Shown here: positions 135-32,136 of the stretch, piece by piece
How positions within the stretch are numbered: position 1 is the first letter of the stretch
Layout: the number at the start of each line of letters is the position of its first letter
Source: Hondaea fermentalgiana
Taxonomy: Eukaryota > Sar > Bigyra > Thraustochytrida > Thraustochytriidae
Reading direction: 5' to 3'
Assembly: GCA_014084085.1 (NCBI GenBank)
Contig: NPFB01000170.1
Location: 1 to 32,136, forward strand
DNA length: 32,136 nucleotides
Program-made: the position numbers and the translations under genes
Notes under the pieces: model-generated
The model's database searches: none
Told to the model about the DNA's origin: nothing
Seen by the model: only the letters and a program-made list of their open reading frames with translations

Positions 135-1724
135 ATGTGCGCGATCCTGGCGCTGCTGCTGGCGGACACGACGTCGCACTGCAGACAGGCGATCTTCGAC
201 GGGCTGACGGTGCTGCAGCACCGCGGGCAGGATGCGGCGGGCATCGTGACGTCGCGCACGACCGAGGACTCGACGCAGTTGAACCAGCACAAGGGGCTGG
301 GCATGGTGCGCGACGTGTTCACGCAGGGCGAGATGCTCAAGCTCGAGGGAAACTGCGGAATTGGCCACTGCAGGTACCCCACGGCAGGCCGCACCTCGTC
401 CCCGGAGGAGGCGCAGCCCATGTACAACAACTACCCGTGCGGCCTGGCCCTCGCGCACAATGGCAACCTGACGAACAAGAACCAGCTGCAGGACCACGTC
501 CGCGGCCTGCACCGGCACCTGAACACCCAGAGCGACAGCGAGGCGCTGCTCAATGTCTTTGCCGAGGAGCTGCGTCTGCAGCTCGACTCGCGCGGCGGCC
601 AGCGTACGGCCAAGATCGAGCCCGAGCACATTTTCGCCGCTGTCAAGCGCACCATGGAGCTCTGCCGAGGCGGCTACGCGGTGGTCATGCTCATCCACGA
701 CGTCGGCGTCCTGGCCTTTCGCGACCCGTGGGGCATCCGGCCCATCATGGTGGGAAGCCGCAAGAGCCAGACGCTCGAGGGCGGCATCGATTACGTCTTT
801 AGCTCCGAGTCGGTGGCCTCGGACACCCTGGGCTTTGACATGCTCCGCGACGTCCGCCCTGGCGAGTGCATGCTGGCGGTGCCGATGAAGCCGAACCAGC
901 CGCGCGAAGACCTTGGCCTCATCTCCAAGCAGCTCGTGGGCGACGGCAACACGGTGGTGCCTTGCCTTTTTGAGTACGTCTACTTTGCGCGTCCGGACTC
1001 GATCATGAACGGCGTGTCTGTGTACGAGTCGCGACTGCAGATGGGCGAGAAGTTGGCGGACAAGATCATGCGCGAGCACCCGAACGAGAAGATCGACGTG
1101 GTTATCCCGATCCCGGACACGAGCCGCACCTCGGCCTTGGCGCTCGCCCACCGCATGGGCATCCCGTACCGCGAGGGATTCATCAAGAACCGCTACATTG
1201 GCCGGACCTTCATCATGCCCGAGCAGTCGCAGCGTAAGAAGAACGTGCGTCTCAAGCTCAACACGGTGCGCGCCGAGTTCGAGGGGCTCAATGTGTTGCT
1301 CGTGGACGACTCGATCGTGCGCGGCACCACATCGACGCAGCTCGTTTCGATGGCGCGCGATGCGGGCGCCAACAAGGTGTTTTTCTGCAGCGCTGCGCCG
1401 GAGATTCGCCATCCCAACATTTACGGCATTGACCTTCCGACGGCCAGCGAGCTCGTGGCCTTTGACCGGACGAGTGACGAGATTGCGGAGGTGCTCAAGT
1501 GCGATTGGGTCCTCTTTCAGGATCTCGACGACCTTGAGGAGGCCGTGCGCGCCATCAACCCTGAACTCAAGACCTTTGAGGGTTCGACGTTTTCTGGTTC
1601 GTACGTGACCAACGACGTCGACGTCAACTACTTTTCCTCTCTGGCTGAGGAGCGCAACGACTTTGCCAAGCTTACGCGCGAGCAGAGCGTGCAGAGCGTG
1701 CGCTCGACTCCGTCACAAGTATAG
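135..1724 (+). CDS. purF: amidophosphoribosyltransferase (glutamine PRPP amidotransferase)
   Basis: Catalyses the first committed step of de novo purine synthesis: PRPP plus glutamine gives phosphoribosylamine, glutamate and pyrophosphate; cytosolic in eukaryotes. The 529-residue frame is close to the usual ~500. The N-terminal Ntn-type glutaminase domain (about 2-230) has its nucleophile at Cys2 directly after Met, so no propeptide is needed, and carries LQHRGQDAAG (27-36) and GHCRYPTAG (near 76-84). The C-terminal phosphoribosyltransferase domain has the PRPP loop LLVDDSIVRGTTS (388-400) and the segment IPDTSRTSALALAHRMG. The start at 135 is fixed by the need for Cys2. Residue 3 is Ala where the family nearly always has Gly (MCG). 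The last ~50 residues are a variable tail. No intron is needed. Identification is secure; regulation is not visible. Confidence 0.97.
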   Translation: MCAILALLLADTTSHCRQAIFDGLTVLQHRGQDAAGIVTSRTTEDSTQLNQHKGLGMVRDVFTQGEMLKLEGNCGIGHCRYPTAGRTSSPEEAQPMYNNYPCGLALAHNGNLTNKNQLQDHVRGLHRHLNTQSDSEALLNVFAEELRLQLDSRGGQRTAKIEPEHIFAAVKRTMELCRGGYAVVMLIHDVGVLAFRDPWGIRPIMVGSRKSQTLEGGIDYVFSSESVASDTLGFDMLRDVRPGECMLAVPMKPNQPREDLGLISKQLVGDGNTVVPCLFEYVYFARPDSIMNGVSVYESRLQMGEKLADKIMREHPNEKIDVVIPIPDTSRTSALALAHRMGIPYREGFIKNRYIGRTFIMPEQSQRKKNVRLKLNTVRAEFEGLNVLLVDDSIVRGTTSTQLVSMARDAGANKVFFCSAAPEIRHPNIYGIDLPTASELVAFDRTSDEIAEVLKCDWVLFQDLDDLEEAVRAINPELKTFEGSTFSGSYVTNDVDVNYFSSLAEERNDFAKLTREQSVQSVRSTPSQV

Positions 1725-13409: not shown

Positions 13410-14426
13410 ATGGCCGGCGCCGACTCGCGATCCGACGGGGCAAAGGCCAAGATGACTCGGACGCTCGCGCCCTCGGCCAAGGGCGCGCCTGCGACGGCGA
13501 CCAAGGCCCGGTCGAACGTGCAAATGGCGCAGCGCGCCGCGAAACCCGCCCAGGCGACATCGGCCGCGCGCGTCGTAGCTTCGCAGGGAGCTGCGTCCTC
13601 GCAGTCAGGCGCGGCGTCCACGGCAGTAAGCCCGCCAGCGAGGGCGCCTCGAGCTGGGGCAGCAAGAACAACGCCCGCAACCACTACCACGACGCCGCCG
13701 ACGGCACCAGCGTCGCCAATGTCGGCAGCCTCTTCCGCTGCCTCGGTACAACCTGCCACTCCAAAGTCGAGTTCTCCAAGCGAACAAACTAACGATGACA
13801 GCGACGATACGCCAGGGGTTGGCGTGCCAATGGACCCGGCGCGTGTGTACCGATACCCCGTGTACAAGCCAGACCGTTTTTGCATTTCTGCCGAGGTTCC
13901 GTCACCGCCGTGGTATGTACGCCAAGTCGGGCGCATGTATGTGCTGGCAGAGCGTACTCTCCCTGACGGTACGCCCAAGTTGTTGTGTGTGGTTGGCCCA
14001 TGTTGGCCCATGATTTGCATTACGCTGATGCTCATCCTTTGTGTGAGCCTTTCTGTGTTCTTTGCCTGTCTACCAAACTTGCCAATGCCTTTTGGCATTG
14101 CTGGAGGCGTTCTTTTGCTCGTGGTGATCATCTCGTTTTGCATCACAGCGTGCACAGATCCCGGAATCCAAAGAATTCACGACACTCCAAAGGACTCCTC
14201 GTGGACATTCAGTGACCCAGCGCAAACGTATCGACAGCCTCGTGCCGTGTACGACGTCGAGGCGCAAGTAATAATCAGGCACATCGACCATTTCTGTCCG
14301 TGGACTGGCACCATCATCGCTGCCAACAATCTCGTCCCCTTTTATGTATTTACCTACAGCCTTTGTGCGCTGGTCCTTTTGGTGGTGTCTGTCGTCATTG
14401 TGCGTGGCTCTGGAGTCTTTGAATAG
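13410..14426 (+). CDS. degenerate, truncated DHHC-family palmitoyltransferase-like protein
   Basis: DHHC proteins S-acylate cysteines of membrane proteins. This 338-residue frame starts in a perfect CACCATGG context. Residues 1-135 are Ala/Thr/Pro/Ser-rich. Two transmembrane helices follow (about 191-213 and 226-246), the second ending in the family's TDPG motif. The Cys-rich domain aligns without gaps with the standard layout from PRA to the active site, but the zinc-binding Cys positions are Asp, Ala and Ile, and the catalytic DHHC is DHFC (293-296). The catalytic Cys296 and PWTG remain. A third helix (near 307-330) follows and the frame stops; the fourth helix and C-terminal motifs are missing, with a convergent gene 246 bases away. 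It may be a pseudoenzyme or a decaying gene. Yeast Akr1 works with DHYC, so activity is not excluded by DHFC alone. Confidence 0.8.
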   Translation: MAGADSRSDGAKAKMTRTLAPSAKGAPATATKARSNVQMAQRAAKPAQATSAARVVASQGAASSQSGAASTAVSPPARAPRAGAARTTPATTTTTPPTAPASPMSAASSAASVQPATPKSSSPSEQTNDDSDDTPGVGVPMDPARVYRYPVYKPDRFCISAEVPSPPWYVRQVGRMYVLAERTLPDGTPKLLCVVGPCWPMICITLMLILCVSLSVFFACLPNLPMPFGIAGGVLLLVVIISFCITACTDPGIQRIHDTPKDSSWTFSDPAQTYRQPRAVYDVEAQVIIRHIDHFCPWTGTIIAANNLVPFYVFTYSLCALVLLVVSVVIVRGSGVFE

Positions 14427-14598
14427 CGAAAGTGTGAAATTCTTGTCCGATTGGTCGCAAAAAGAAATCAAGCTATGCCTGGCGATCTGCTACGGAATGC
14501 GAGCAAAGTATGAACTTTTAATCACACACAAGCTACAATCCATCAAAAAGGATACAAATGTGCTTCGCATCAAGCTGAAATCCATTCGTTTCTCGTTG

Positions 14599-14604
14599 TT
14601 TATT
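14599..14604 (-). terminator. candidate polyadenylation signal of the phosphoesterase gene
   Basis: AATAAA on the minus strand, 69 bases beyond the stop codon of the minus-strand metallophosphoesterase gene. Confidence 0.5.
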
Positions 14605-14672
14605 CATTGATTCCAGCAAATAGTCCTTTGTGTCAAACCATTGTTCTTGTTTGAAAAGAGCAAACTCTGTGC

Positions 14673-16016
14673 TCATGAAGCCTGCGCCGCCAGCTTGCGG
14701 TAACGATGTTTGACCAGCGAAGCAGAACGAGCACGCTCGCTTCCTGCTCCCTGCTGCTGGTTAGTGAGCGCAGAGGCAATATCTTCCCACTTGCCTCCTG
14801 CCTCGCGCATCTTGAGAATCGTTGCATCCTCGTTGGAGGTCCATGCGTCGCGCGCCTCGCGATACTCGTCACGCAATTCACGAAGCGTGCGGAACTCGTG
14901 GCGTACGCCATTGGGACCCACATGAACGATGCGCATGCCACTCAAGCGATCACTCACATCAATGGACTTCATTCCTTCAAAGGCCAGCTCGTCTGCTTCT
15001 GGATCCGTGCCAATATTTCCGCCGATTGCCGCGGTGGTGACGACTTCAATGGGTCCGAGATGTTTGCGCTGGAAAATGCCGCCAGCATTGCGATGATAGT
15101 GACCACAGAAAATGTGTGAGAAGCCCGCTTGAGCCAAGCGAGACAAGAGCTTCATGCGCGCCGCTTGCGGCATATTAAAGCCGGCGTGATGCTCGTCCGG
15201 CTGCCACACAAAGGGAGGAACGTGCGAAAAGGCAATGCTGTGGCGCACCGTTTGGGGCTTTTTGTCAAAGAGCTCGGTGTCGAGCCACACATCTTGGGCC
15301 TCGGCGGCCTCGCGGCATTGCGAGGAATCAACGTAAAGCTGAGAGTTGAGCACCACAAAACGATCCGGCCCAACGCGAAAGGAAAAGTAATCGTCGCCGA
15401 AGCGATCCTTGTAGCGCTCAATTGTCCGCGGGGTCGGTTTCTGACCGACGTCATGGTTGCCGCACACACAGACCAGCTCGATTTCGGGATCGAGCTGCGA
15501 GAAGATTTGCTTGAAAACAGCCACTTCCTTGTCCTGCTGCGCGGGCTTCTTGTCGGGAAAGGCGTTGGTGAGGTCTCCACAGACCACGGCGAAGCGGGGC
15601 TTGGGTTGGAGACGGTTGATAATCTTCACCGCTTTGCGCGCGAGCTCGATCTCGAGTTCGAGCAAAGCCTCGTCGTCTGTATCTTTGAGCGCTGCGCGCA
15701 TCTCCGGCACGGGAATGAGTGCCTTGCCGTCATTTCTCCCGCACGTTGCCAGGTACACGAGTTGCCGCAGCTGCAGGTACCATTGCATGCTCTTCGACTG
15801 CGCCATCATGCCAAACTGCGTGTCCGCCAGCTGCACAAAGGTGTACTCCTCGCCCTCCGCCTGGCCCCGCTGCTGCGTCTGCGCCGCATTCTCGCTCCGC
15901 GTCGAGGTCCCCGTCGGGGTCGCCGTTGCGCCGCCGCTCAGTCCCACGAACCGCCGCCCCGTGGCGCGTCGGAACCGCTGCTCGTCGACGCGGGCCGCCG
16001 CCTGCGGCTCTGCCAT
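14673..16016 (-). CDS. CPPED1-like metallophosphoesterase with C-terminal SANT/Myb-like domain
   Basis: A 447-residue protein. The calcineurin-like fold is clear, with metal and catalytic motifs in order: LADTQFG (63-69; Asp65), CGDLTNAFPD (146-155), CGNHDVG (185-191), SHVPPF (264-269) and CGHYHRN (304-310). The first motif with Gln in place of the usual His, and the spacing, match CPPED1/CSTP1, a cytosolic Ser/Thr protein phosphatase that acts on Akt in animals. After the phosphatase domain, residues 392-441 follow the SANT/Myb pattern: WTSNEDATIL, then GGKWEDIASAL, then RSASLVKHRYRKL. Typical CPPED1 is about 310 residues and has no such domain. The first 50 residues are variable. The ATG at 16016 gives MAEPQAAARV; no intron is needed. 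The substrate here is unknown. Confidence 0.92.
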   Translation of the reverse strand: MAEPQAAARVDEQRFRRATGRRFVGLSGGATATPTGTSTRSENAAQTQQRGQAEGEEYTFVQLADTQFGMMAQSKSMQWYLQLRQLVYLATCGRNDGKALIPVPEMRAALKDTDDEALLELEIELARKAVKIINRLQPKPRFAVVCGDLTNAFPDKKPAQQDKEVAVFKQIFSQLDPEIELVCVCGNHDVGQKPTPRTIERYKDRFGDDYFSFRVGPDRFVVLNSQLYVDSSQCREAAEAQDVWLDTELFDKKPQTVRHSIAFSHVPPFVWQPDEHHAGFNMPQAARMKLLSRLAQAGFSHIFCGHYHRNAGGIFQRKHLGPIEVVTTAAIGGNIGTDPEADELAFEGMKSIDVSDRLSGMRIVHVGPNGVRHEFRTLRELRDEYREARDAWTSNEDATILKMREAGGKWEDIASALTNQQQGAGSERARSASLVKHRYRKLAAQAS

Positions 16017-27821: not shown

Positions 27822-30800
27822 ATGACGACGTCGCGATCAGGATCAAGAAGAGCCTGCAAGATGGCGGTAACCAACAACAACAAGAAGAGAACGCGGTCGC
27901 CCTCGAAAAGGACCTGGGCGACCACGGCAGCCCTGGTGGTATTGCTCGCGACCATGTTGACGGGCACGGCGGCTGATGGTGCGCGCGCTGCGAGCGCACC
28001 CGCCTCGTCCACGAGCCACGAGCACAAGGAAGTGGTTGGTGCCCCAGCCGCGTCGCCCATGGCCGGTACGCCGTACCATCCATCGCACGCCGCGGGAGGC
28101 CAAGATTCGTGGGAAGAGGCGCACTCAGTGTCGCTCTCCCCCACGCCGCTGGGCTCGAGCTTTGCTCGCGCGTCAAATATCGTGTACGAAACAGATGATG
28201 GCAGAGACGACCCTGCTGAGTTTCTCCCCAATGTGGTGATGAACAAGACCTGTCTCCAATCGTCATCGTCTTCCTCGGCCGGTACCTTTTGCCGGCTCAC
28301 AGAGGACCAGCAGGTAATCGCAACGGCCAGTGAAGACTCGCCGTACATTATCATGGACCTCGAAAAACTGTACTATGTGGATCATATTTCCTTTGGTGTC
28401 AACGTGGACCACGTCTCGGAGCAGAACAAGCTTCTCGTGTGGTGCACCAAGGAGCCCAAGGTTGAACCGATTGCGGACGTTTCGGGCCTGCCGTTCAGCT
28501 GGCAAAAAGTCGTACTCCAGAATTCGCAGAGTCTCAGCATGCATGTGCATAGTCCATGTAGCTACTTGCGTATCCAGAGATTAAGCTTTGGCCAGCTCAA
28601 GGTGCAAGACCTTCGTGTGTTCGGCGCCGAAATCAAAAATCCGGAATCCATGGGGTGCATGGCAGGCCACAGCGGCGCTCTCTGCTCTGGCCACGGGACA
28701 TGCGCCGACAGCCAATGTCTCTGCGACTTTGGCTATGGCGGTGCGGCCTGCGCGAGCTTTTTGCTGAGCAAGGTCATCTTCTCCTCCATTCAGGCCACCG
28801 CCCTCGTGGCCGTCTTTGTGTATATGACTGTTTACTACAGGCGTCGGCGCAGCAGCAGCAACGCCAGCGGGTCGCGTGTCACTCCTCCCGGTGCTGGCGA
28901 CCTTTCCGTATTCGGCGCTGAGGAGGATCTGGATGAAGCCGACGTCTCGACGTGCATGGTGAGCAAAGTCGGTGTGCTTACGAAGCGTAGCATTTCCGCC
29001 GAGTCCATGAACGCCTCGCGGACCCCCGCAGGAAACTCTTTTCGCCTCAACGAATCGTTGCATGCCCCGATTCGCCCGGCGCACCCCATTCGGTCCGTCT
29101 CGGGCTCTTCCTTTGCGTCATCGACTGATCAAGGATGCACGTCCAGCCTTCTTCCGTCGCTGGCTCCTGTGAGCGGCAGTGGCCCCAGCGTTGCCGACTT
29201 CCAACAGCCGCAGCAGCAGCTGCAGCAAGAGGGTGTCTTGCACTTGCTGTTCGCCTCGCCCCTCATCATGACGGGCAAGGAGGGATCCAGCAACGCGGAA
29301 AATACGGTGAATGGCAGACATTTCCGACCGGTCCAGGGCCTCGACATTAAGCGCGAGTACGCCATGCTTCGGCGGAGCCTGCGGGCTGCTGCGCTCTCGT
29401 CCAACGGGAACGCTCGCAGCGAGGTCCCCGTGACCGTTTCGTGCGCCACGGTGGAGTCCTTTCACTCGCTTATGACCCTGGGAAACGCGCGCTGCCTTCA
29501 TTTTAGCGGCCACTGCACCAAGAACTTTATTGCTTTTGAAGATGCCGCCGGTCAACTGCACTCCGTGAGCATGGAGACGCTGCGCGGCTTGCTGCGCAGC
29601 ACTGTGACGCGGCAGTCCTTCAAGACGCTTCGTCTTGTCGTGCTGAACGCATGCAACTCGGACGCAGCGGCGCGCGAGTTCGTGCTGGCGGGCGTCGAGC
29701 ATGTCATTGCTTACCGCAAGCGGGTCCGCGACCAAGTTGCGGCTGTTTTTACGCGAAGCTTTTACCTGGCGCTTGCCTGTGGCCGCACCGTGCGCGACGC
29801 CTTTGAGTCGGCACGCGAAGCCGTGCAGAGCTCGCCCTCTTTTGCCGAGGAGGACATGGACGCCTTTGTATTGCTTCCGGAGAACAGCTCGCATCGTGAG
29901 GTCATTTGGAAGCCTTCTGTGCAGGAGCGTAAACAGGTGTCGCGCTCGTGGCCGCTTAGCGACACCATGTGCGCGTTGCCGCCGCTCTGCGAAGAGTTTT
30001 TGGGCCGCCACGCCGCCATGTGGACGGTTTTGCGTCATTTGACGCAGGACCGGCGTCGTCTTGTCGCGGTGCACTCCGAGGCCGAGGGCGCGGGCAAGAC
30101 GCAACTGGCGCTGGCCGTGGCGCACCACCTCCACCAGCGCCGCAGCGCAACGGTGATGCGGGACGGCATCTTTTACGTCAAGGGCGTGCACCATCGTACG
30201 CAGGGGGCAAACGATTCTTCCGAAGCCCAAATTACCGAGATGGCGAGTCTCGTGGATGAGCTTTGGGACGCAATGTACCCTCTCTTGTCTGCGGAAACCC
30301 CGGCGGAGCAGACAATGCAGCGTAGCATGAGCTCTTCGCAGCCCTCGATGGCGCCTTTGGATGCGGATCTCGAATTTTTCGGTTTCGAAGAAACTGACAG
30401 TGACTTGGATGCCATGGAGTTCTCGCCTCACTTTTACGCGGACCGTCGGGCAGTGTCTCGCGCAACCATTGAGGCTACGGAGCCTCTGCTTTCCGCGGAC
30501 CTCGATCTCTTGAGCGACGAGGAGGAATCAGGAAGCTTCAAGGAAGATGCAAAGGACAAGTACAAGAAGGAGGAGGCGACGGGGCGCGCTGGCGATGCGA
30601 CGTCGAGCCAGCGCCAGAAAAGACTCGCGCTCAACGTTCTCCGTCGACGTGCGGTCGCCAAGGTCAATCTTCTCGCTCGCGCGCTCGCGCAGCACTCGGC
30701 GCGCTGCCTCATTGTGCTGGACGACTTTCGCGAGTCTCCGCTGACCATGTCGGTCTTGCACTCAATTTTGGACCAAACTTCCGGCGTACGAATCCTCGTT

Positions 30801-31112
30801 ACCTCGGAAAACCCGCTGCACTTGGGACACACGCTCAATGTGAACGTGGTCAACTACCAGCTGCAGCCCATGCATGCGGGTGATGCCGCATTGCTCTTTG
30901 TTCGCCACCTCAAGCGGAGGATCATTGTTCGGAGCAATGAGGACCCAGATGTGGTGCAGCGTGAGGCCACGCTGCAGGAGGTTGCGCAGCACGCTGTTGT
31001 GAACAGCTGCGAGGGCAATCCGCGAGAGATCATTCACCTTGCGAGTGATCTTTCGTCCAACCTTGTGGGCCCGGACCTCGACCTCGATGCTTCGCTTGCG
31101 GCGTCGCTCTAA
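27822..31112 (+). CDS. transmembrane receptor-like protein: discoidin-like, EGF-like, TM, CHAT protease, STAND NTPase
   Basis: A 1096-residue single-exon protein from the first ATG; the ATG at 27861 also fits and shortens the leader. Order: hydrophobic leader (33-50); discoidin/F5-8C-like segment (about 118-272, ending SYLRIQRLSFGQLKVQDLRVFG); EGF-like module with six Cys (279-310); transmembrane helix (313-339) followed by RRRR; Ser-rich linker with a Gln tract; CHAT domain (about 470-675) with HFSGH (His564) and LVVLNACNS (Cys611), the caspase-like dyad; then an NTPase with FLGR, Walker A EGAGKTQLA (Lys759), Walker B CLIVLDDF (Asp967/968), RILVTSE and an ARC-like NSCEGNPREIIHLA. It ends there, with no TPR, WD or LRR tail. 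CHAT and STAND domains are known from regulated cell death and immunity; a surface receptor controlling a caspase-like protease is inferred. Ligand and substrate are unknown. Confidence 0.9.
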   Translation: MTTSRSGSRRACKMAVTNNNKKRTRSPSKRTWATTAALVVLLATMLTGTAADGARAASAPASSTSHEHKEVVGAPAASPMAGTPYHPSHAAGGQDSWEEAHSVSLSPTPLGSSFARASNIVYETDDGRDDPAEFLPNVVMNKTCLQSSSSSSAGTFCRLTEDQQVIATASEDSPYIIMDLEKLYYVDHISFGVNVDHVSEQNKLLVWCTKEPKVEPIADVSGLPFSWQKVVLQNSQSLSMHVHSPCSYLRIQRLSFGQLKVQDLRVFGAEIKNPESMGCMAGHSGALCSGHGTCADSQCLCDFGYGGAACASFLLSKVIFSSIQATALVAVFVYMTVYYRRRRSSSNASGSRVTPPGAGDLSVFGAEEDLDEADVSTCMVSKVGVLTKRSISAESMNASRTPAGNSFRLNESLHAPIRPAHPIRSVSGSSFASSTDQGCTSSLLPSLAPVSGSGPSVADFQQPQQQLQQEGVLHLLFASPLIMTGKEGSSNAENTVNGRHFRPVQGLDIKREYAMLRRSLRAAALSSNGNARSEVPVTVSCATVESFHSLMTLGNARCLHFSGHCTKNFIAFEDAAGQLHSVSMETLRGLLRSTVTRQSFKTLRLVVLNACNSDAAAREFVLAGVEHVIAYRKRVRDQVAAVFTRSFYLALACGRTVRDAFESAREAVQSSPSFAEEDMDAFVLLPENSSHREVIWKPSVQERKQVSRSWPLSDTMCALPPLCEEFLGRHAAMWTVLRHLTQDRRRLVAVHSEAEGAGKTQLALAVAHHLHQRRSATVMRDGIFYVKGVHHRTQGANDSSEAQITEMASLVDELWDAMYPLLSAETPAEQTMQRSMSSSQPSMAPLDADLEFFGFEETDSDLDAMEFSPHFYADRRAVSRATIEATEPLLSADLDLLSDEEESGSFKEDAKDKYKKEEATGRAGDATSSQRQKRLALNVLRRRAVAKVNLLARALAQHSARCLIVLDDFRESPLTMSVLHSILDQTSGVRILVTSENPLHLGHTLNVNVVNYQLQPMHAGDAALLFVRHLKRRIIVRSNEDPDVVQREATLQEVAQHAVVNSCEGNPREIIHLASDLSSNLVGPDLDLDASLAASL

Positions 31113-31391: not shown

Positions 31392-31426
31392 CTGAAATAC
31401 TATTAGTTACGAGTCTAATAATTCAG
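31392..31426. other. inverted repeat at the 3' end of the transposase-like ORF
   Basis: CTGAA-ATAC-TATTAG (31392-31406) pairs with CTAATA-ATTCAG (31415-31426) apart from a short bulge, with an 8-base loop. It covers the stop codon of the minus-strand transposase-like frame. It may be a hairpin terminator or part of an element end; not proven to be a terminal inverted repeat. Confidence 0.4.
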
Positions 31427-32136
31427 AAATCCGTCCTGATCAATGACCTTCTGTAGCGATGCTACGAGGACACTCAATTCTCCAAACAATGGTTTGCGGC
31501 TGTAGATCCTTTCAAACCCCTTCTCAATGATGATTTCGAGAGCGCCGAGCCGCCTTGTGGCTTTCTCGCCGTGAGGGACCTTTTCAGCGAGGAGCAAGCT
31601 AGTGATCAAAGTGTCGTTGCGCTCATGCTGAGCAAATGTCCGAAGGACGCGATTGTAGTATTTGCACAAGTTCAGATGCGGTGAATTTGGCGAAATTCGA
31701 AGAAAAGATATCGAGCCTCCATTCTCGGTGACGAAGTCGTTAAGTGGCGCGAAGTTCTCGATACTCCTCAGTAAGATGTCATCAGCATCAGGCGTAGAAA
31801 CACCGGCTGTATGCTCAGGGGCGTTATTCATGACCAAGAACACACGCTTTCCTTTGATTAAATCCTTGTACGATCCGCTTTCCCAGTTGCAATTTTTCTC
31901 CATTAAGCGGCGGAAAAGCCCACTCATAAAGTTGCGAAATTCGTCTCGCGTGTACGCTGCCTTGAGGACGGACCGCTGAGAAAGCTCTCCATCCTTCGCC
32001 CTGATTACTTTCATCTTCTTTGGCGAGTAGCAGTCCCCGTAAATCAGTCCTTCCCTTGGATGCACGGCCATTGCGACCTGCGCTCGATACGCAAAGTTGC
32101 TGATTGGAGGAACCTTAACCACTGCACGATCTCCCG
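31415..32136 (-). pseudogene. Tc1/mariner-like (DDE superfamily) transposase, 5' truncated by window edge, degenerate
   Basis: The minus-strand frame is open from the window edge to a TAG at 31415-31417, about 240 codons; the first in-frame Met is well inside, so the start lies outside the window. The order KRVFLVMNNAPEH and then FLRISPNSPHLNLCKYYNRVLR matches the second and third catalytic blocks of the Tc1/mariner/IS630 DDE fold (typically DNAxxH and SPDLNPIE). In this copy the second catalytic Asp is Asn, and Lys occupies the place of the third acidic residue, so strand transfer is unlikely. There is no internal stop or frameshift. It reads as an old or domesticated element copy. The sequence is visibly less GC-rich than the housekeeping genes, which supports a mobile origin. 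Confidence 0.75.

What the first reader, a model, noticed from the sequence alone, without database searches (positions are those of the whole stretch)
27822..31112. Single-pass membrane receptor carrying a CHAT caspase-like protease and a STAND NTPase
The sequence shows a secretory leader, a discoidin-like segment, a six-Cys EGF-like module, one transmembrane helix with a basic stop-transfer, then CHAT with His564 and Cys611 and a P-loop NTPase with Walker A, Walker B and an ARC-like motif. CHAT (caspase family, clan CD) and STAND/NB-ARC proteins are established parts of regulated cell death and antiviral or immune systems, usually soluble and with repeat-type sensors. Here the sensor appears to be an ectodomain, so binding of a surface ligand could be coupled directly to protease activation. 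I know of no described system with exactly this order, though I could not search for one.
Basis: partly seen in the sequence, partly recalled or inferred. Interest (0 to 1): 0.88.

Follow-up and report, generated by a model that had tools for sequence, protein, structure and literature searches.

The report
Caspase-type protease built into a receptor
This gene, from what is probably a marine protist, encodes a predicted single-pass membrane protein with a likely lectin-like outer part and an inner caspase-type (CHAT) protease domain whose two catalytic residues are kept in all five members found, so it likely works as a one-piece surface receptor that would turn an outside contact directly into protein cutting inside the cell.

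The parts
27822..31112 (+). Single open frame of the receptor protease, 1096 aa plus stop
   Evidence: Translation; four relatives of the same order
27918..27974 (+). Hydrophobic leader, residues 33-51 (signal peptide; start at Met1 or Met14)
   Evidence: Kyte-Doolittle peak 1.71; comparable N-terminal peaks in P0004 and P0006 and P0008; absent in P0003, whose start may be incomplete
28224..28634 (+). Discoidin/galactose-binding-like jelly-roll ectodomain, about residues 135-271
28242..28250 (+). Conserved N-glycosylation sequon Asn141
   Evidence: N-x-S/T in 5 of 5 members
28656..28751 (+). EGF-like module, residues 279-310, six cysteines
   Evidence: EGF_Teneurin above cut-off in the window protein (below it in the four relatives); six Cys invariant in 5 of 5
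28776..28832 (+). Transmembrane helix, residues 319-337, with basic cytosolic flank
   Evidence: Hydropathy 1.83; 5 basic residues in the 15 after it, 1 in the 15 before; a peak at the same place in 5 of 5
28857..29231 (+). Poorly conserved juxtamembrane linker, residues 346-470
   Evidence: 9-30% pairwise identity among four members, variable length
29232..29921 (+). CHAT caspase-like protease domain, residues 471-700 (Pfam match 509-675)
   Evidence: PF12770 63.7 bits; 58-68% identity among four members
29511..29513 (+). Catalytic His564
   Evidence: Invariant in 5 of 5; aligns with a His of PDB 8tl0, a CHAT protein
29652..29654 (+). Catalytic Cys611
   Evidence: Invariant in 5 of 5; aligns with a Cys of PDB 8tl0
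29967..31061 (+). NB-ARC/AAA_16-like nucleotide-binding-type domain, about residues 716-1080
   Evidence: NB-ARC and AAA_16 above cut-off in P0006 and P0004; NB-ARC below cut-off here
30078..30101 (+). Degenerate Walker A, residues 753-760 (EAEGAGKT)
   Evidence: Alignment and pattern test
30312..30641 (+). Low-conservation insert inside the NBD, residues 831-940
   Evidence: Mostly absent from P0004 and P0006; 12-24% identity among four members
30708..30725 (+). Walker B-like LIVLDD, residues 963-968
   Evidence: Asp967 invariant in 5 of 5, residue 968 Asp in 4 of 5

Best explanation
The gene encodes a predicted single-pass membrane receptor whose likely lectin-like plus EGF ectodomain is joined, in one polypeptide, to a CHAT caspase-type protease domain and an eroded NB-ARC-type domain that would lie in the cytosol. 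Shown by sequence: the order of parts, its conservation in five members, the invariant His-Cys dyad and the missing Walker A consensus. Inferred: ligand or contact on the outside clusters the receptor; clustering brings CHAT domains together and orders the active site (as caspase dimerisation or Csx29 allostery does); the NBD serves as an oligomerisation or docking hub that no longer needs ATP hydrolysis; CHAT then cuts a cytosolic substrate to release a signal. It would thus do in one chain what death receptor, adaptor and initiator caspase do together in animals. The substrate, and whether the outcome is death, adhesion or differentiation, is unknown.
For: CHAT far above cut-off in the window protein (63.7 bits, cut-off 24) and in 4 of 4 relatives (43.7-55.6 bits). 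Dyad in 5 of 5, while a related LRR-CHAT protein (P0007) lacks the His motif and has Phe in place of the Cys, so the dyad is not kept by default. A hydrophobic segment follows the EGF in 5 of 5, with more basic residues on the CHAT side in 4 of 5; in P0004 the count ties 1:1, with 2 acidic residues outside and none inside. Conserved sequon and six Cys on the other side. Ectodomain fold. Full Walker A in 0 of 5. The same CHAT-NBD core occurs in two paralogs of this genome that look soluble (no 19-residue hydropathy peak of 1.6 or more in C91; one of 1.70 within the NBD stretch in C15) and have other inputs (hhalign 99.9%, E 3.7e-33 for C91; 99.3%, E 7.7e-21 for C15): a core with interchangeable inputs. 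P0003 comes from transcriptome sample MMETSP0098 (name), a QPX strain (PMC6011583, passages), so ectodomain, TM and CHAT lie on one transcript there.
Confidence: 0.55

Rival explanations
1. NLR-like ATP switch: the NBD still binds ATP and drives oligomerisation of CHAT as in NLR proteins, the ectodomain merely replacing the repeats.
For: NB-ARC and AAA_16 above cut-off in P0006 and P0004; the window keeps Lys759, Thr760, Asp967 and Asp968; two paralogs keep the lysine. Fungal NLRs carrying a CHAT protease are in print (PMC10197012, passages).
Against: Full Walker A in 0 of 5; lysine lost in 4 of 5 (Gln, Arg, Arg, Arg); NBD halves less conserved than ectodomain or CHAT (30-44% identity against 48-61% and 58-68%, four members).
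Confidence: 0.22
2. Cell-death or immune receptor: the ectodomain detects a pathogen or non-self surface and CHAT triggers regulated death.
For: CHAT proteases activate gasdermins in fungi and serve gasdermin defence in bacteria (PMC12881547 and PMC10197012, passages); the fold resembles lectins.
Against: No gasdermin by PF04598 in the own genome at E<=1 (divergent ones would be missed). Only one receptor-type locus found: the whole-protein search gave 4 places, 3 of them limited to residues 503-787. The ectodomain is conserved at 48-61% among four members, unlike expanded, fast-changing immune sensors (general knowledge).
Confidence: 0.25
3. It sits in an internal membrane (ER, Golgi, vacuole) and its jelly roll reads glycans or folding state in the lumen, with CHAT signalling to the cytosol.
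For: Jelly-roll domains also occur in luminal proteins (general knowledge); nothing here separates the two locations; the leader could be an uncleaved anchor with a long basic n-region.
Against: EGF plus discoidin-like modules are mostly extracellular (general knowledge).
Confidence: 0.2
4. CHAT is a pseudoprotease used as a scaffold.
For: Non-Gly after His in 5 of 5; a pseudo-CHAT exists in kin (P0007).
Against: His and Cys invariant in 5 of 5 while neighbours vary; CHAT is the most conserved part.
Confidence: 0.1
5. Assembly or gene-model fusion of two genes.
For: None beyond the many overlapping open frames on both strands in this high-GC region.
Against: Same order in four relatives from jgi (two), ncbi and a transcriptome.
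Confidence: 0.01

Closest known systems
Fungal NLR-like proteins carrying a CHAT protease (PMC10197012, PMC12881547; passages seen)
   Same: CHAT and a STAND-type NBD in one chain; protease physically part of the receptor
   Different: Described there with repeats (WD40, TPR or ANK) as sensors; here a secreted-type ectodomain and a TM helix precede CHAT, the NBD is C-terminal, lacks a full Walker A, and no repeats follow
Csx29, the TPR-CHAT protease of a CRISPR system (PMC10028731; passages seen)
   Same: His-Cys dyad (H615/C658 there) in a CHAT domain; switched allosterically by a partner
   Different: RNA-triggered through Cas7-11; no membrane part or NBD mentioned in the passages seen
Protein P0016, CHAT - hydrophobic segment - FGE-type domain (jgi, probably bacterial, not checked)
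   Same: CHAT and a single hydrophobic segment (252-270) with a folded domain beyond it
   Different: Reverse order (CHAT first), PF03781 domain instead of jelly roll plus EGF, no NBD among its Pfam domains
Animal death receptor - FADD - caspase-8 axis (general knowledge)
   Same: Would work like it: outside ligand to cytosolic caspase-type protease
   Different: One polypeptide; CHAT family, not C14 caspase; no death domain among Pfam hits
CHAT-STAND paralogs of the same genome (C91 with SPRY, ARM-like and LRR-like parts; C15 with SH2)
   Same: Homologous CHAT plus NBD core
   Different: No ectodomain match and no TM-type peak outside the NBD stretch; C91 has SPRY (49.7 bits, cut-off 26.3), C15 an SH2 domain (25.1 bits, cut-off 21)

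Membership tests
CHAT protease (PF12770) | Profile score above curated cut-off | tested here: met
   63.7 bits, cut-off 24; 5 of 5 members
CHAT protease (PF12770) | Catalytic His and Cys | tested here: met
   His564 and Cys611 in 5 of 5; aligned to a His and a Cys of 8tl0
CHAT protease (PF12770) | Proteolytic activity | not testable with these tools
   Needs biochemistry
CHAT protease (PF12770) | Caspase-type fold | tested here: inconclusive
   Full-length model pLDDT 42.6, CHAT part mostly under 60; no model of CHAT alone was made
STAND / NB-ARC NTPase | NB-ARC profile above cut-off | tested here: inconclusive
   Window 19.9 bits, below 23.5; P0006 35.1 and P0004 25.1 above; P0003 and P0008 no NB-ARC hit, P0008 NACHT 17.6 below 26.7
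STAND / NB-ARC NTPase | Full Walker A GxxxxGK[ST] | tested here: not met
   0 of 5 members
STAND / NB-ARC NTPase | Walker B acidic residue | tested here: met
   Asp967 in 5 of 5
STAND / NB-ARC NTPase | C-terminal superstructure repeats as sensor (usual, not universal) | tested here: not met
   Proteins end 23-35 residues after the GxP motif in 5 of 5
F5/8 type C (discoidin) domain | Pfam F5_F8_type_C match | tested here: not met
   Not among the 14 families matched by any of 5 members at E<=10 (HMMER's filters drop most weak matches); Muskelin_N, which I recall as discoidin-like, 15.3 bits below its 27 in 1 of 5
Galactose-binding-like jelly roll (superfamily of discoidin, F-type lectin, CBM32, IFT25; grouping recalled) | Fold | tested here: met
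F-type lectin (fucose binding) | Sugar-binding motif H-x(about 24)-R-x-D-x4-[RK] (recalled) | tested here: not met
   Found in 0 of 5 ectodomains
EGF-like module | Six cysteines and profile match | tested here: met
   Six Cys in 5 of 5; EGF_Teneurin 25.3 bits, cut-off 24.3, in the window; in the four relatives the EGF profiles stay below cut-off as whole proteins (16.8-22.9 bits for EGF_Teneurin)
Single-pass type I membrane receptor | Leader plus one TM helix, basic inside | tested here: met
   TM-type peak after the EGF in 5 of 5, leader in 4 of 5 (P0003 lacks it); P0003 also has three lower peaks of 1.31-1.48 in its CHAT and NBD parts; hydropathy only, no dedicated predictor
Single-pass type I membrane receptor | Surface location and ligand binding | not testable with these tools
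   Needs cell biology
CHAT-gasdermin death pathway | A gasdermin partner | tested here: inconclusive
   No PF04598 match in the own genome at E<=1; divergent gasdermins would be missed

The most novel reading that the evidence does not exclude
A receptor caspase: a protist surface receptor in which a lectin-fold ectodomain directly switches a caspase-type protease in the same chain, without adaptor or ATP-driven apoptosome, the ancestral NTPase having been demoted to a passive clustering hub; kin with LRR/SPRY or SH2 inputs show one protease core wired to different inputs.
Probability: 0.38. Interest if true: 0.82.

Novelty: new variant of a known kind. Interest (0 to 1): 0.63.

Why it matters
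In animals, outside-in control of a caspase needs a receptor, an adaptor and a protease. If this chain is a working receptor protease, a single-celled lineage wires a caspase-type enzyme straight to a surface sensor, which would make the origin of ligand-gated proteolysis testable outside animals. The contrast with paralogs of the same core (SPRY/LRR-like, SH2) offers a natural experiment: which input needs the NTPase and which does not.

Tried and rejected
Fusion artefact: rejected, because four relatives share the order. F-type lectin with a fucose site: the fold matches, but the recalled motif is found in 0 of 5 ectodomains. Sequence kinship of the ectodomain with the genome's own IFT25-like protein or one of its two SUN proteins: hhalign gave probabilities of 0.9% and 0.1%, i.e. 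none shown (the second SUN protein was not compared). Non-Gly after the catalytic His as a sign of a dead enzyme: weakened by the control, in which 9 of 15 other CHAT proteins with the motif have Gly and 6 do not (16 proteins given, namely all 14 other CHAT-bearing hits plus P0005 and P0007; P0007 has no motif). Full-length folding with four rows gave a poor model, and its Foldseek list, with IFT25 first and some discoidin and CBM domains but also virus capsids, is only a hint. NCBIfam and PADLOC gave nothing above a cut-off or of weight for the 3 proteins given. PDB by sequence: only 8tl0 for CHAT and weak plant NLR matches for the NBD; weak EGF-region matches for the ectodomain. Leucine-rich repeats in the extra N-terminal part of P0008 are by eye only; Pfam shows none. 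Literature: searches (listings; CC-licensed PMC text only) showed no paper describing this order; a proteome paper on Aurantiochytrium limacinum has none of the six terms tried (PMC12221091); coral papers speak of TPR-CHAT proteins (PMC6208414, PMC9145168, passages); a search on cell death in labyrinthulomycetes gave a listing that I did not follow.

The protein searches score only the roughly 8000 candidates that share most words (7993, 7986 and 7994), and P0006 and P0008 appeared only with alignments, so more members may exist and the spread is a lower bound. The tree groups the five receptors (97/99), but its outgroup branches are very long and order inside the group is not resolved; whether Lys759 in the window is ancestral or regained cannot be said.
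Full report
What is there. The frame 27822-31112 on the + strand is open for 1096 codons. By Pfam it carries CHAT (63.7 bits, cut-off 24) and an EGF module (25.3, cut-off 24.3); NB-ARC is found but below its cut-off (19.9 against 23.5). Two hydrophobic segments stand out, 33-51 and 319-337; the second is followed by YYRRRR. The window lies in a 36.0 Mb, 238-contig genome.

Relatives. Three protein searches gave, besides the window's own copy P0002, four proteins of the same order: P0003 (921 aa, from sample MMETSP0098), P0004 (900 aa, jgi), P0006 (967 aa, ncbi) and P0008 (1052 aa, jgi, with an extra N-terminal part). Passages of PMC6011583 state that MMETSP0098 is a strain of QPX, a protistan parasite of clams; the abstract of PMC3986615, seen in a listing, calls QPX a thraustochytrid. 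Overall identity to the window protein is 41-48%. As P0003 comes from a transcriptome and the other three from jgi and ncbi records, the worry that ectodomain and cytosolic part are separate genes is answered.

Conservation by part (four members without P0008, pairwise): stretch with the jelly roll 48-61%, EGF 42-47%, TM 8-41%, juxtamembrane linker 9-30%, CHAT 58-68%, NBD halves 30-44%, NBD insert 12-24%. So both the outer sensor and the protease are under strong constraint, and the NBD under less. In all five members the CHAT His564 and Cys611, six EGF cysteines and the Asn141 sequon are kept.

The NTPase part. P0006 and P0004 give NB-ARC (35.1, 25.1 bits) and AAA_16 (39.6, 33.8) above cut-off, so the domain is of that kind. 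But Walker A reads EAEGAGKT in the window, KQKGMGQS in P0003, GVEGVGRT in P0004, GPKGIGRT in P0006 and CTPGIGRS in P0008: 0 of 5 match GxxxxGK[ST]. Walker B Asp967 is kept in 5 of 5. The proteins end 23-35 residues after the GxP motif in 5 of 5: no repeats follow. I read this as an NBD kept for shape (clustering or docking) and losing hydrolysis, but the window's own copy keeps the lysine and could still bind nucleotide.

Kin in the same genome. A CHAT census of the genome gave 5 places, 4 above cut-off: the window; C15; C91; C133, which is separase (Peptidase_C50 260.4 bits); and C93 (below cut-off there, 34.4 bits as a protein). The cytosolic core of the receptor aligns over CHAT and NBD with C91 (hhalign 99.9%, E 3.7e-33) and C15 (99.3%, E 7.7e-21). 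C91 carries SPRY above cut-off, an LRR match below cut-off and ARM-like repeats by eye; C15 carries an SH2 domain above cut-off. C15 has the full Walker A (GAEGIGKT); C91 has GTSGIGKL, lysine kept but no Ser/Thr after it. Hydropathy shows no peak of 1.6 or more in C91 and one of 1.70, inside the NBD stretch, in C15, so both look soluble. So one CHAT-NBD core has been given a membrane ectodomain, repeats with SPRY, or SH2.

Mechanism. Type I topology places CHAT in the cytosol: leader, sequon and disulfide-type cysteines on one side, basic flank and catalytic cysteine on the other (inference). Caspase-type enzymes are switched by dimerisation or by allosteric ordering of the active site (general knowledge); for Csx29 the text describes C658 and H615 improperly placed until target RNA binds (PMC10028731, passages). 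The simplest reading is ligand-driven clustering of ectodomains that orders CHAT, with the NBD as hub. Output unknown: fungal CHAT proteins activate gasdermins and bacterial gasdermin systems use them (PMC10197012 and PMC12881547, passages), but no PF04598 gasdermin was found here. One receptor-type locus (of 4 places, the other 3 stay within residues 503-787) and a conserved ectodomain speak for a constant ligand, such as self surface, matrix or partner cell, rather than fast-changing pathogens (inference).

Novelty. CHAT with NLR-type domains is known in fungi. Bacteria have CLec sensors and NACHT domains predicted on either side of the membrane (PMC10907252, section 14 and passages), and CHAT-like domains in diversified proteins (PMC7517822, passages); P0016 is a probably bacterial CHAT-TM-FGE chain. 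I found no text on a eukaryotic ectodomain-TM-CHAT chain (searches; listings, CC-licensed papers only). I file it as a new variant of CHAT-STAND proteins, working like a death receptor and caspase in one chain; it is not filed as a STAND NTPase, since the full Walker A and the repeat sensor were tested and not met.

Noticed in passing
L007:1214-3853 (-), own genome contig C15: CHAT-STAND protein with a C-terminal SH2 domain (25.1 bits, cut-off 21): a caspase-type protease core tied to a phosphotyrosine-binding module, itself worth a study.
   Followed up: partly
L005:3477-9899 and L010 (-), own genome contig C91: About 2950-codon open frame running to the contig end with SPRY (49.7 bits), ARM-like, LRR-like, CHAT and NBD parts.
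   Followed up: partly
L008:3540-6269 (+), own genome contig C93: CHAT split by a large low-complexity insertion between the His and Cys motifs, no NBD hit.
   Followed up: partly
P0007: LRR-CHAT protein with a Macro match just below cut-off (20.7 of 22), whose CHAT has lost both catalytic residues (His motif absent, Phe for Cys): a pseudo-CHAT.
   Followed up: partly
P0016: CHAT - hydrophobic segment - formylglycine-enzyme-type protein, probably bacterial: a possible counterpart of a membrane CHAT receptor.
   Followed up: partly
window 31415-32134 (-): Open-ended frame next to the receptor gene that looks like a DDE-type transposase by eye; no Pfam match at E<=0.01.
   Followed up: no
window 135-1724 (+): Glutamine amidotransferase plus phosphoribosyltransferase domains: probable amidophosphoribosyltransferase of purine synthesis.
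   Followed up: no
window 13410-16016: DHHC palmitoyltransferase part (13410-14423 +) and a calcineurin-like phosphoesterase with a Myb-like end below cut-off (14676-16016 -).
   Followed up: no
L016-L018, own genome contigs C12 and C184: Metacaspase-type (PF00656) matches at C12 and C184, so C14-type proteases coexist with CHAT here.
   Followed up: no
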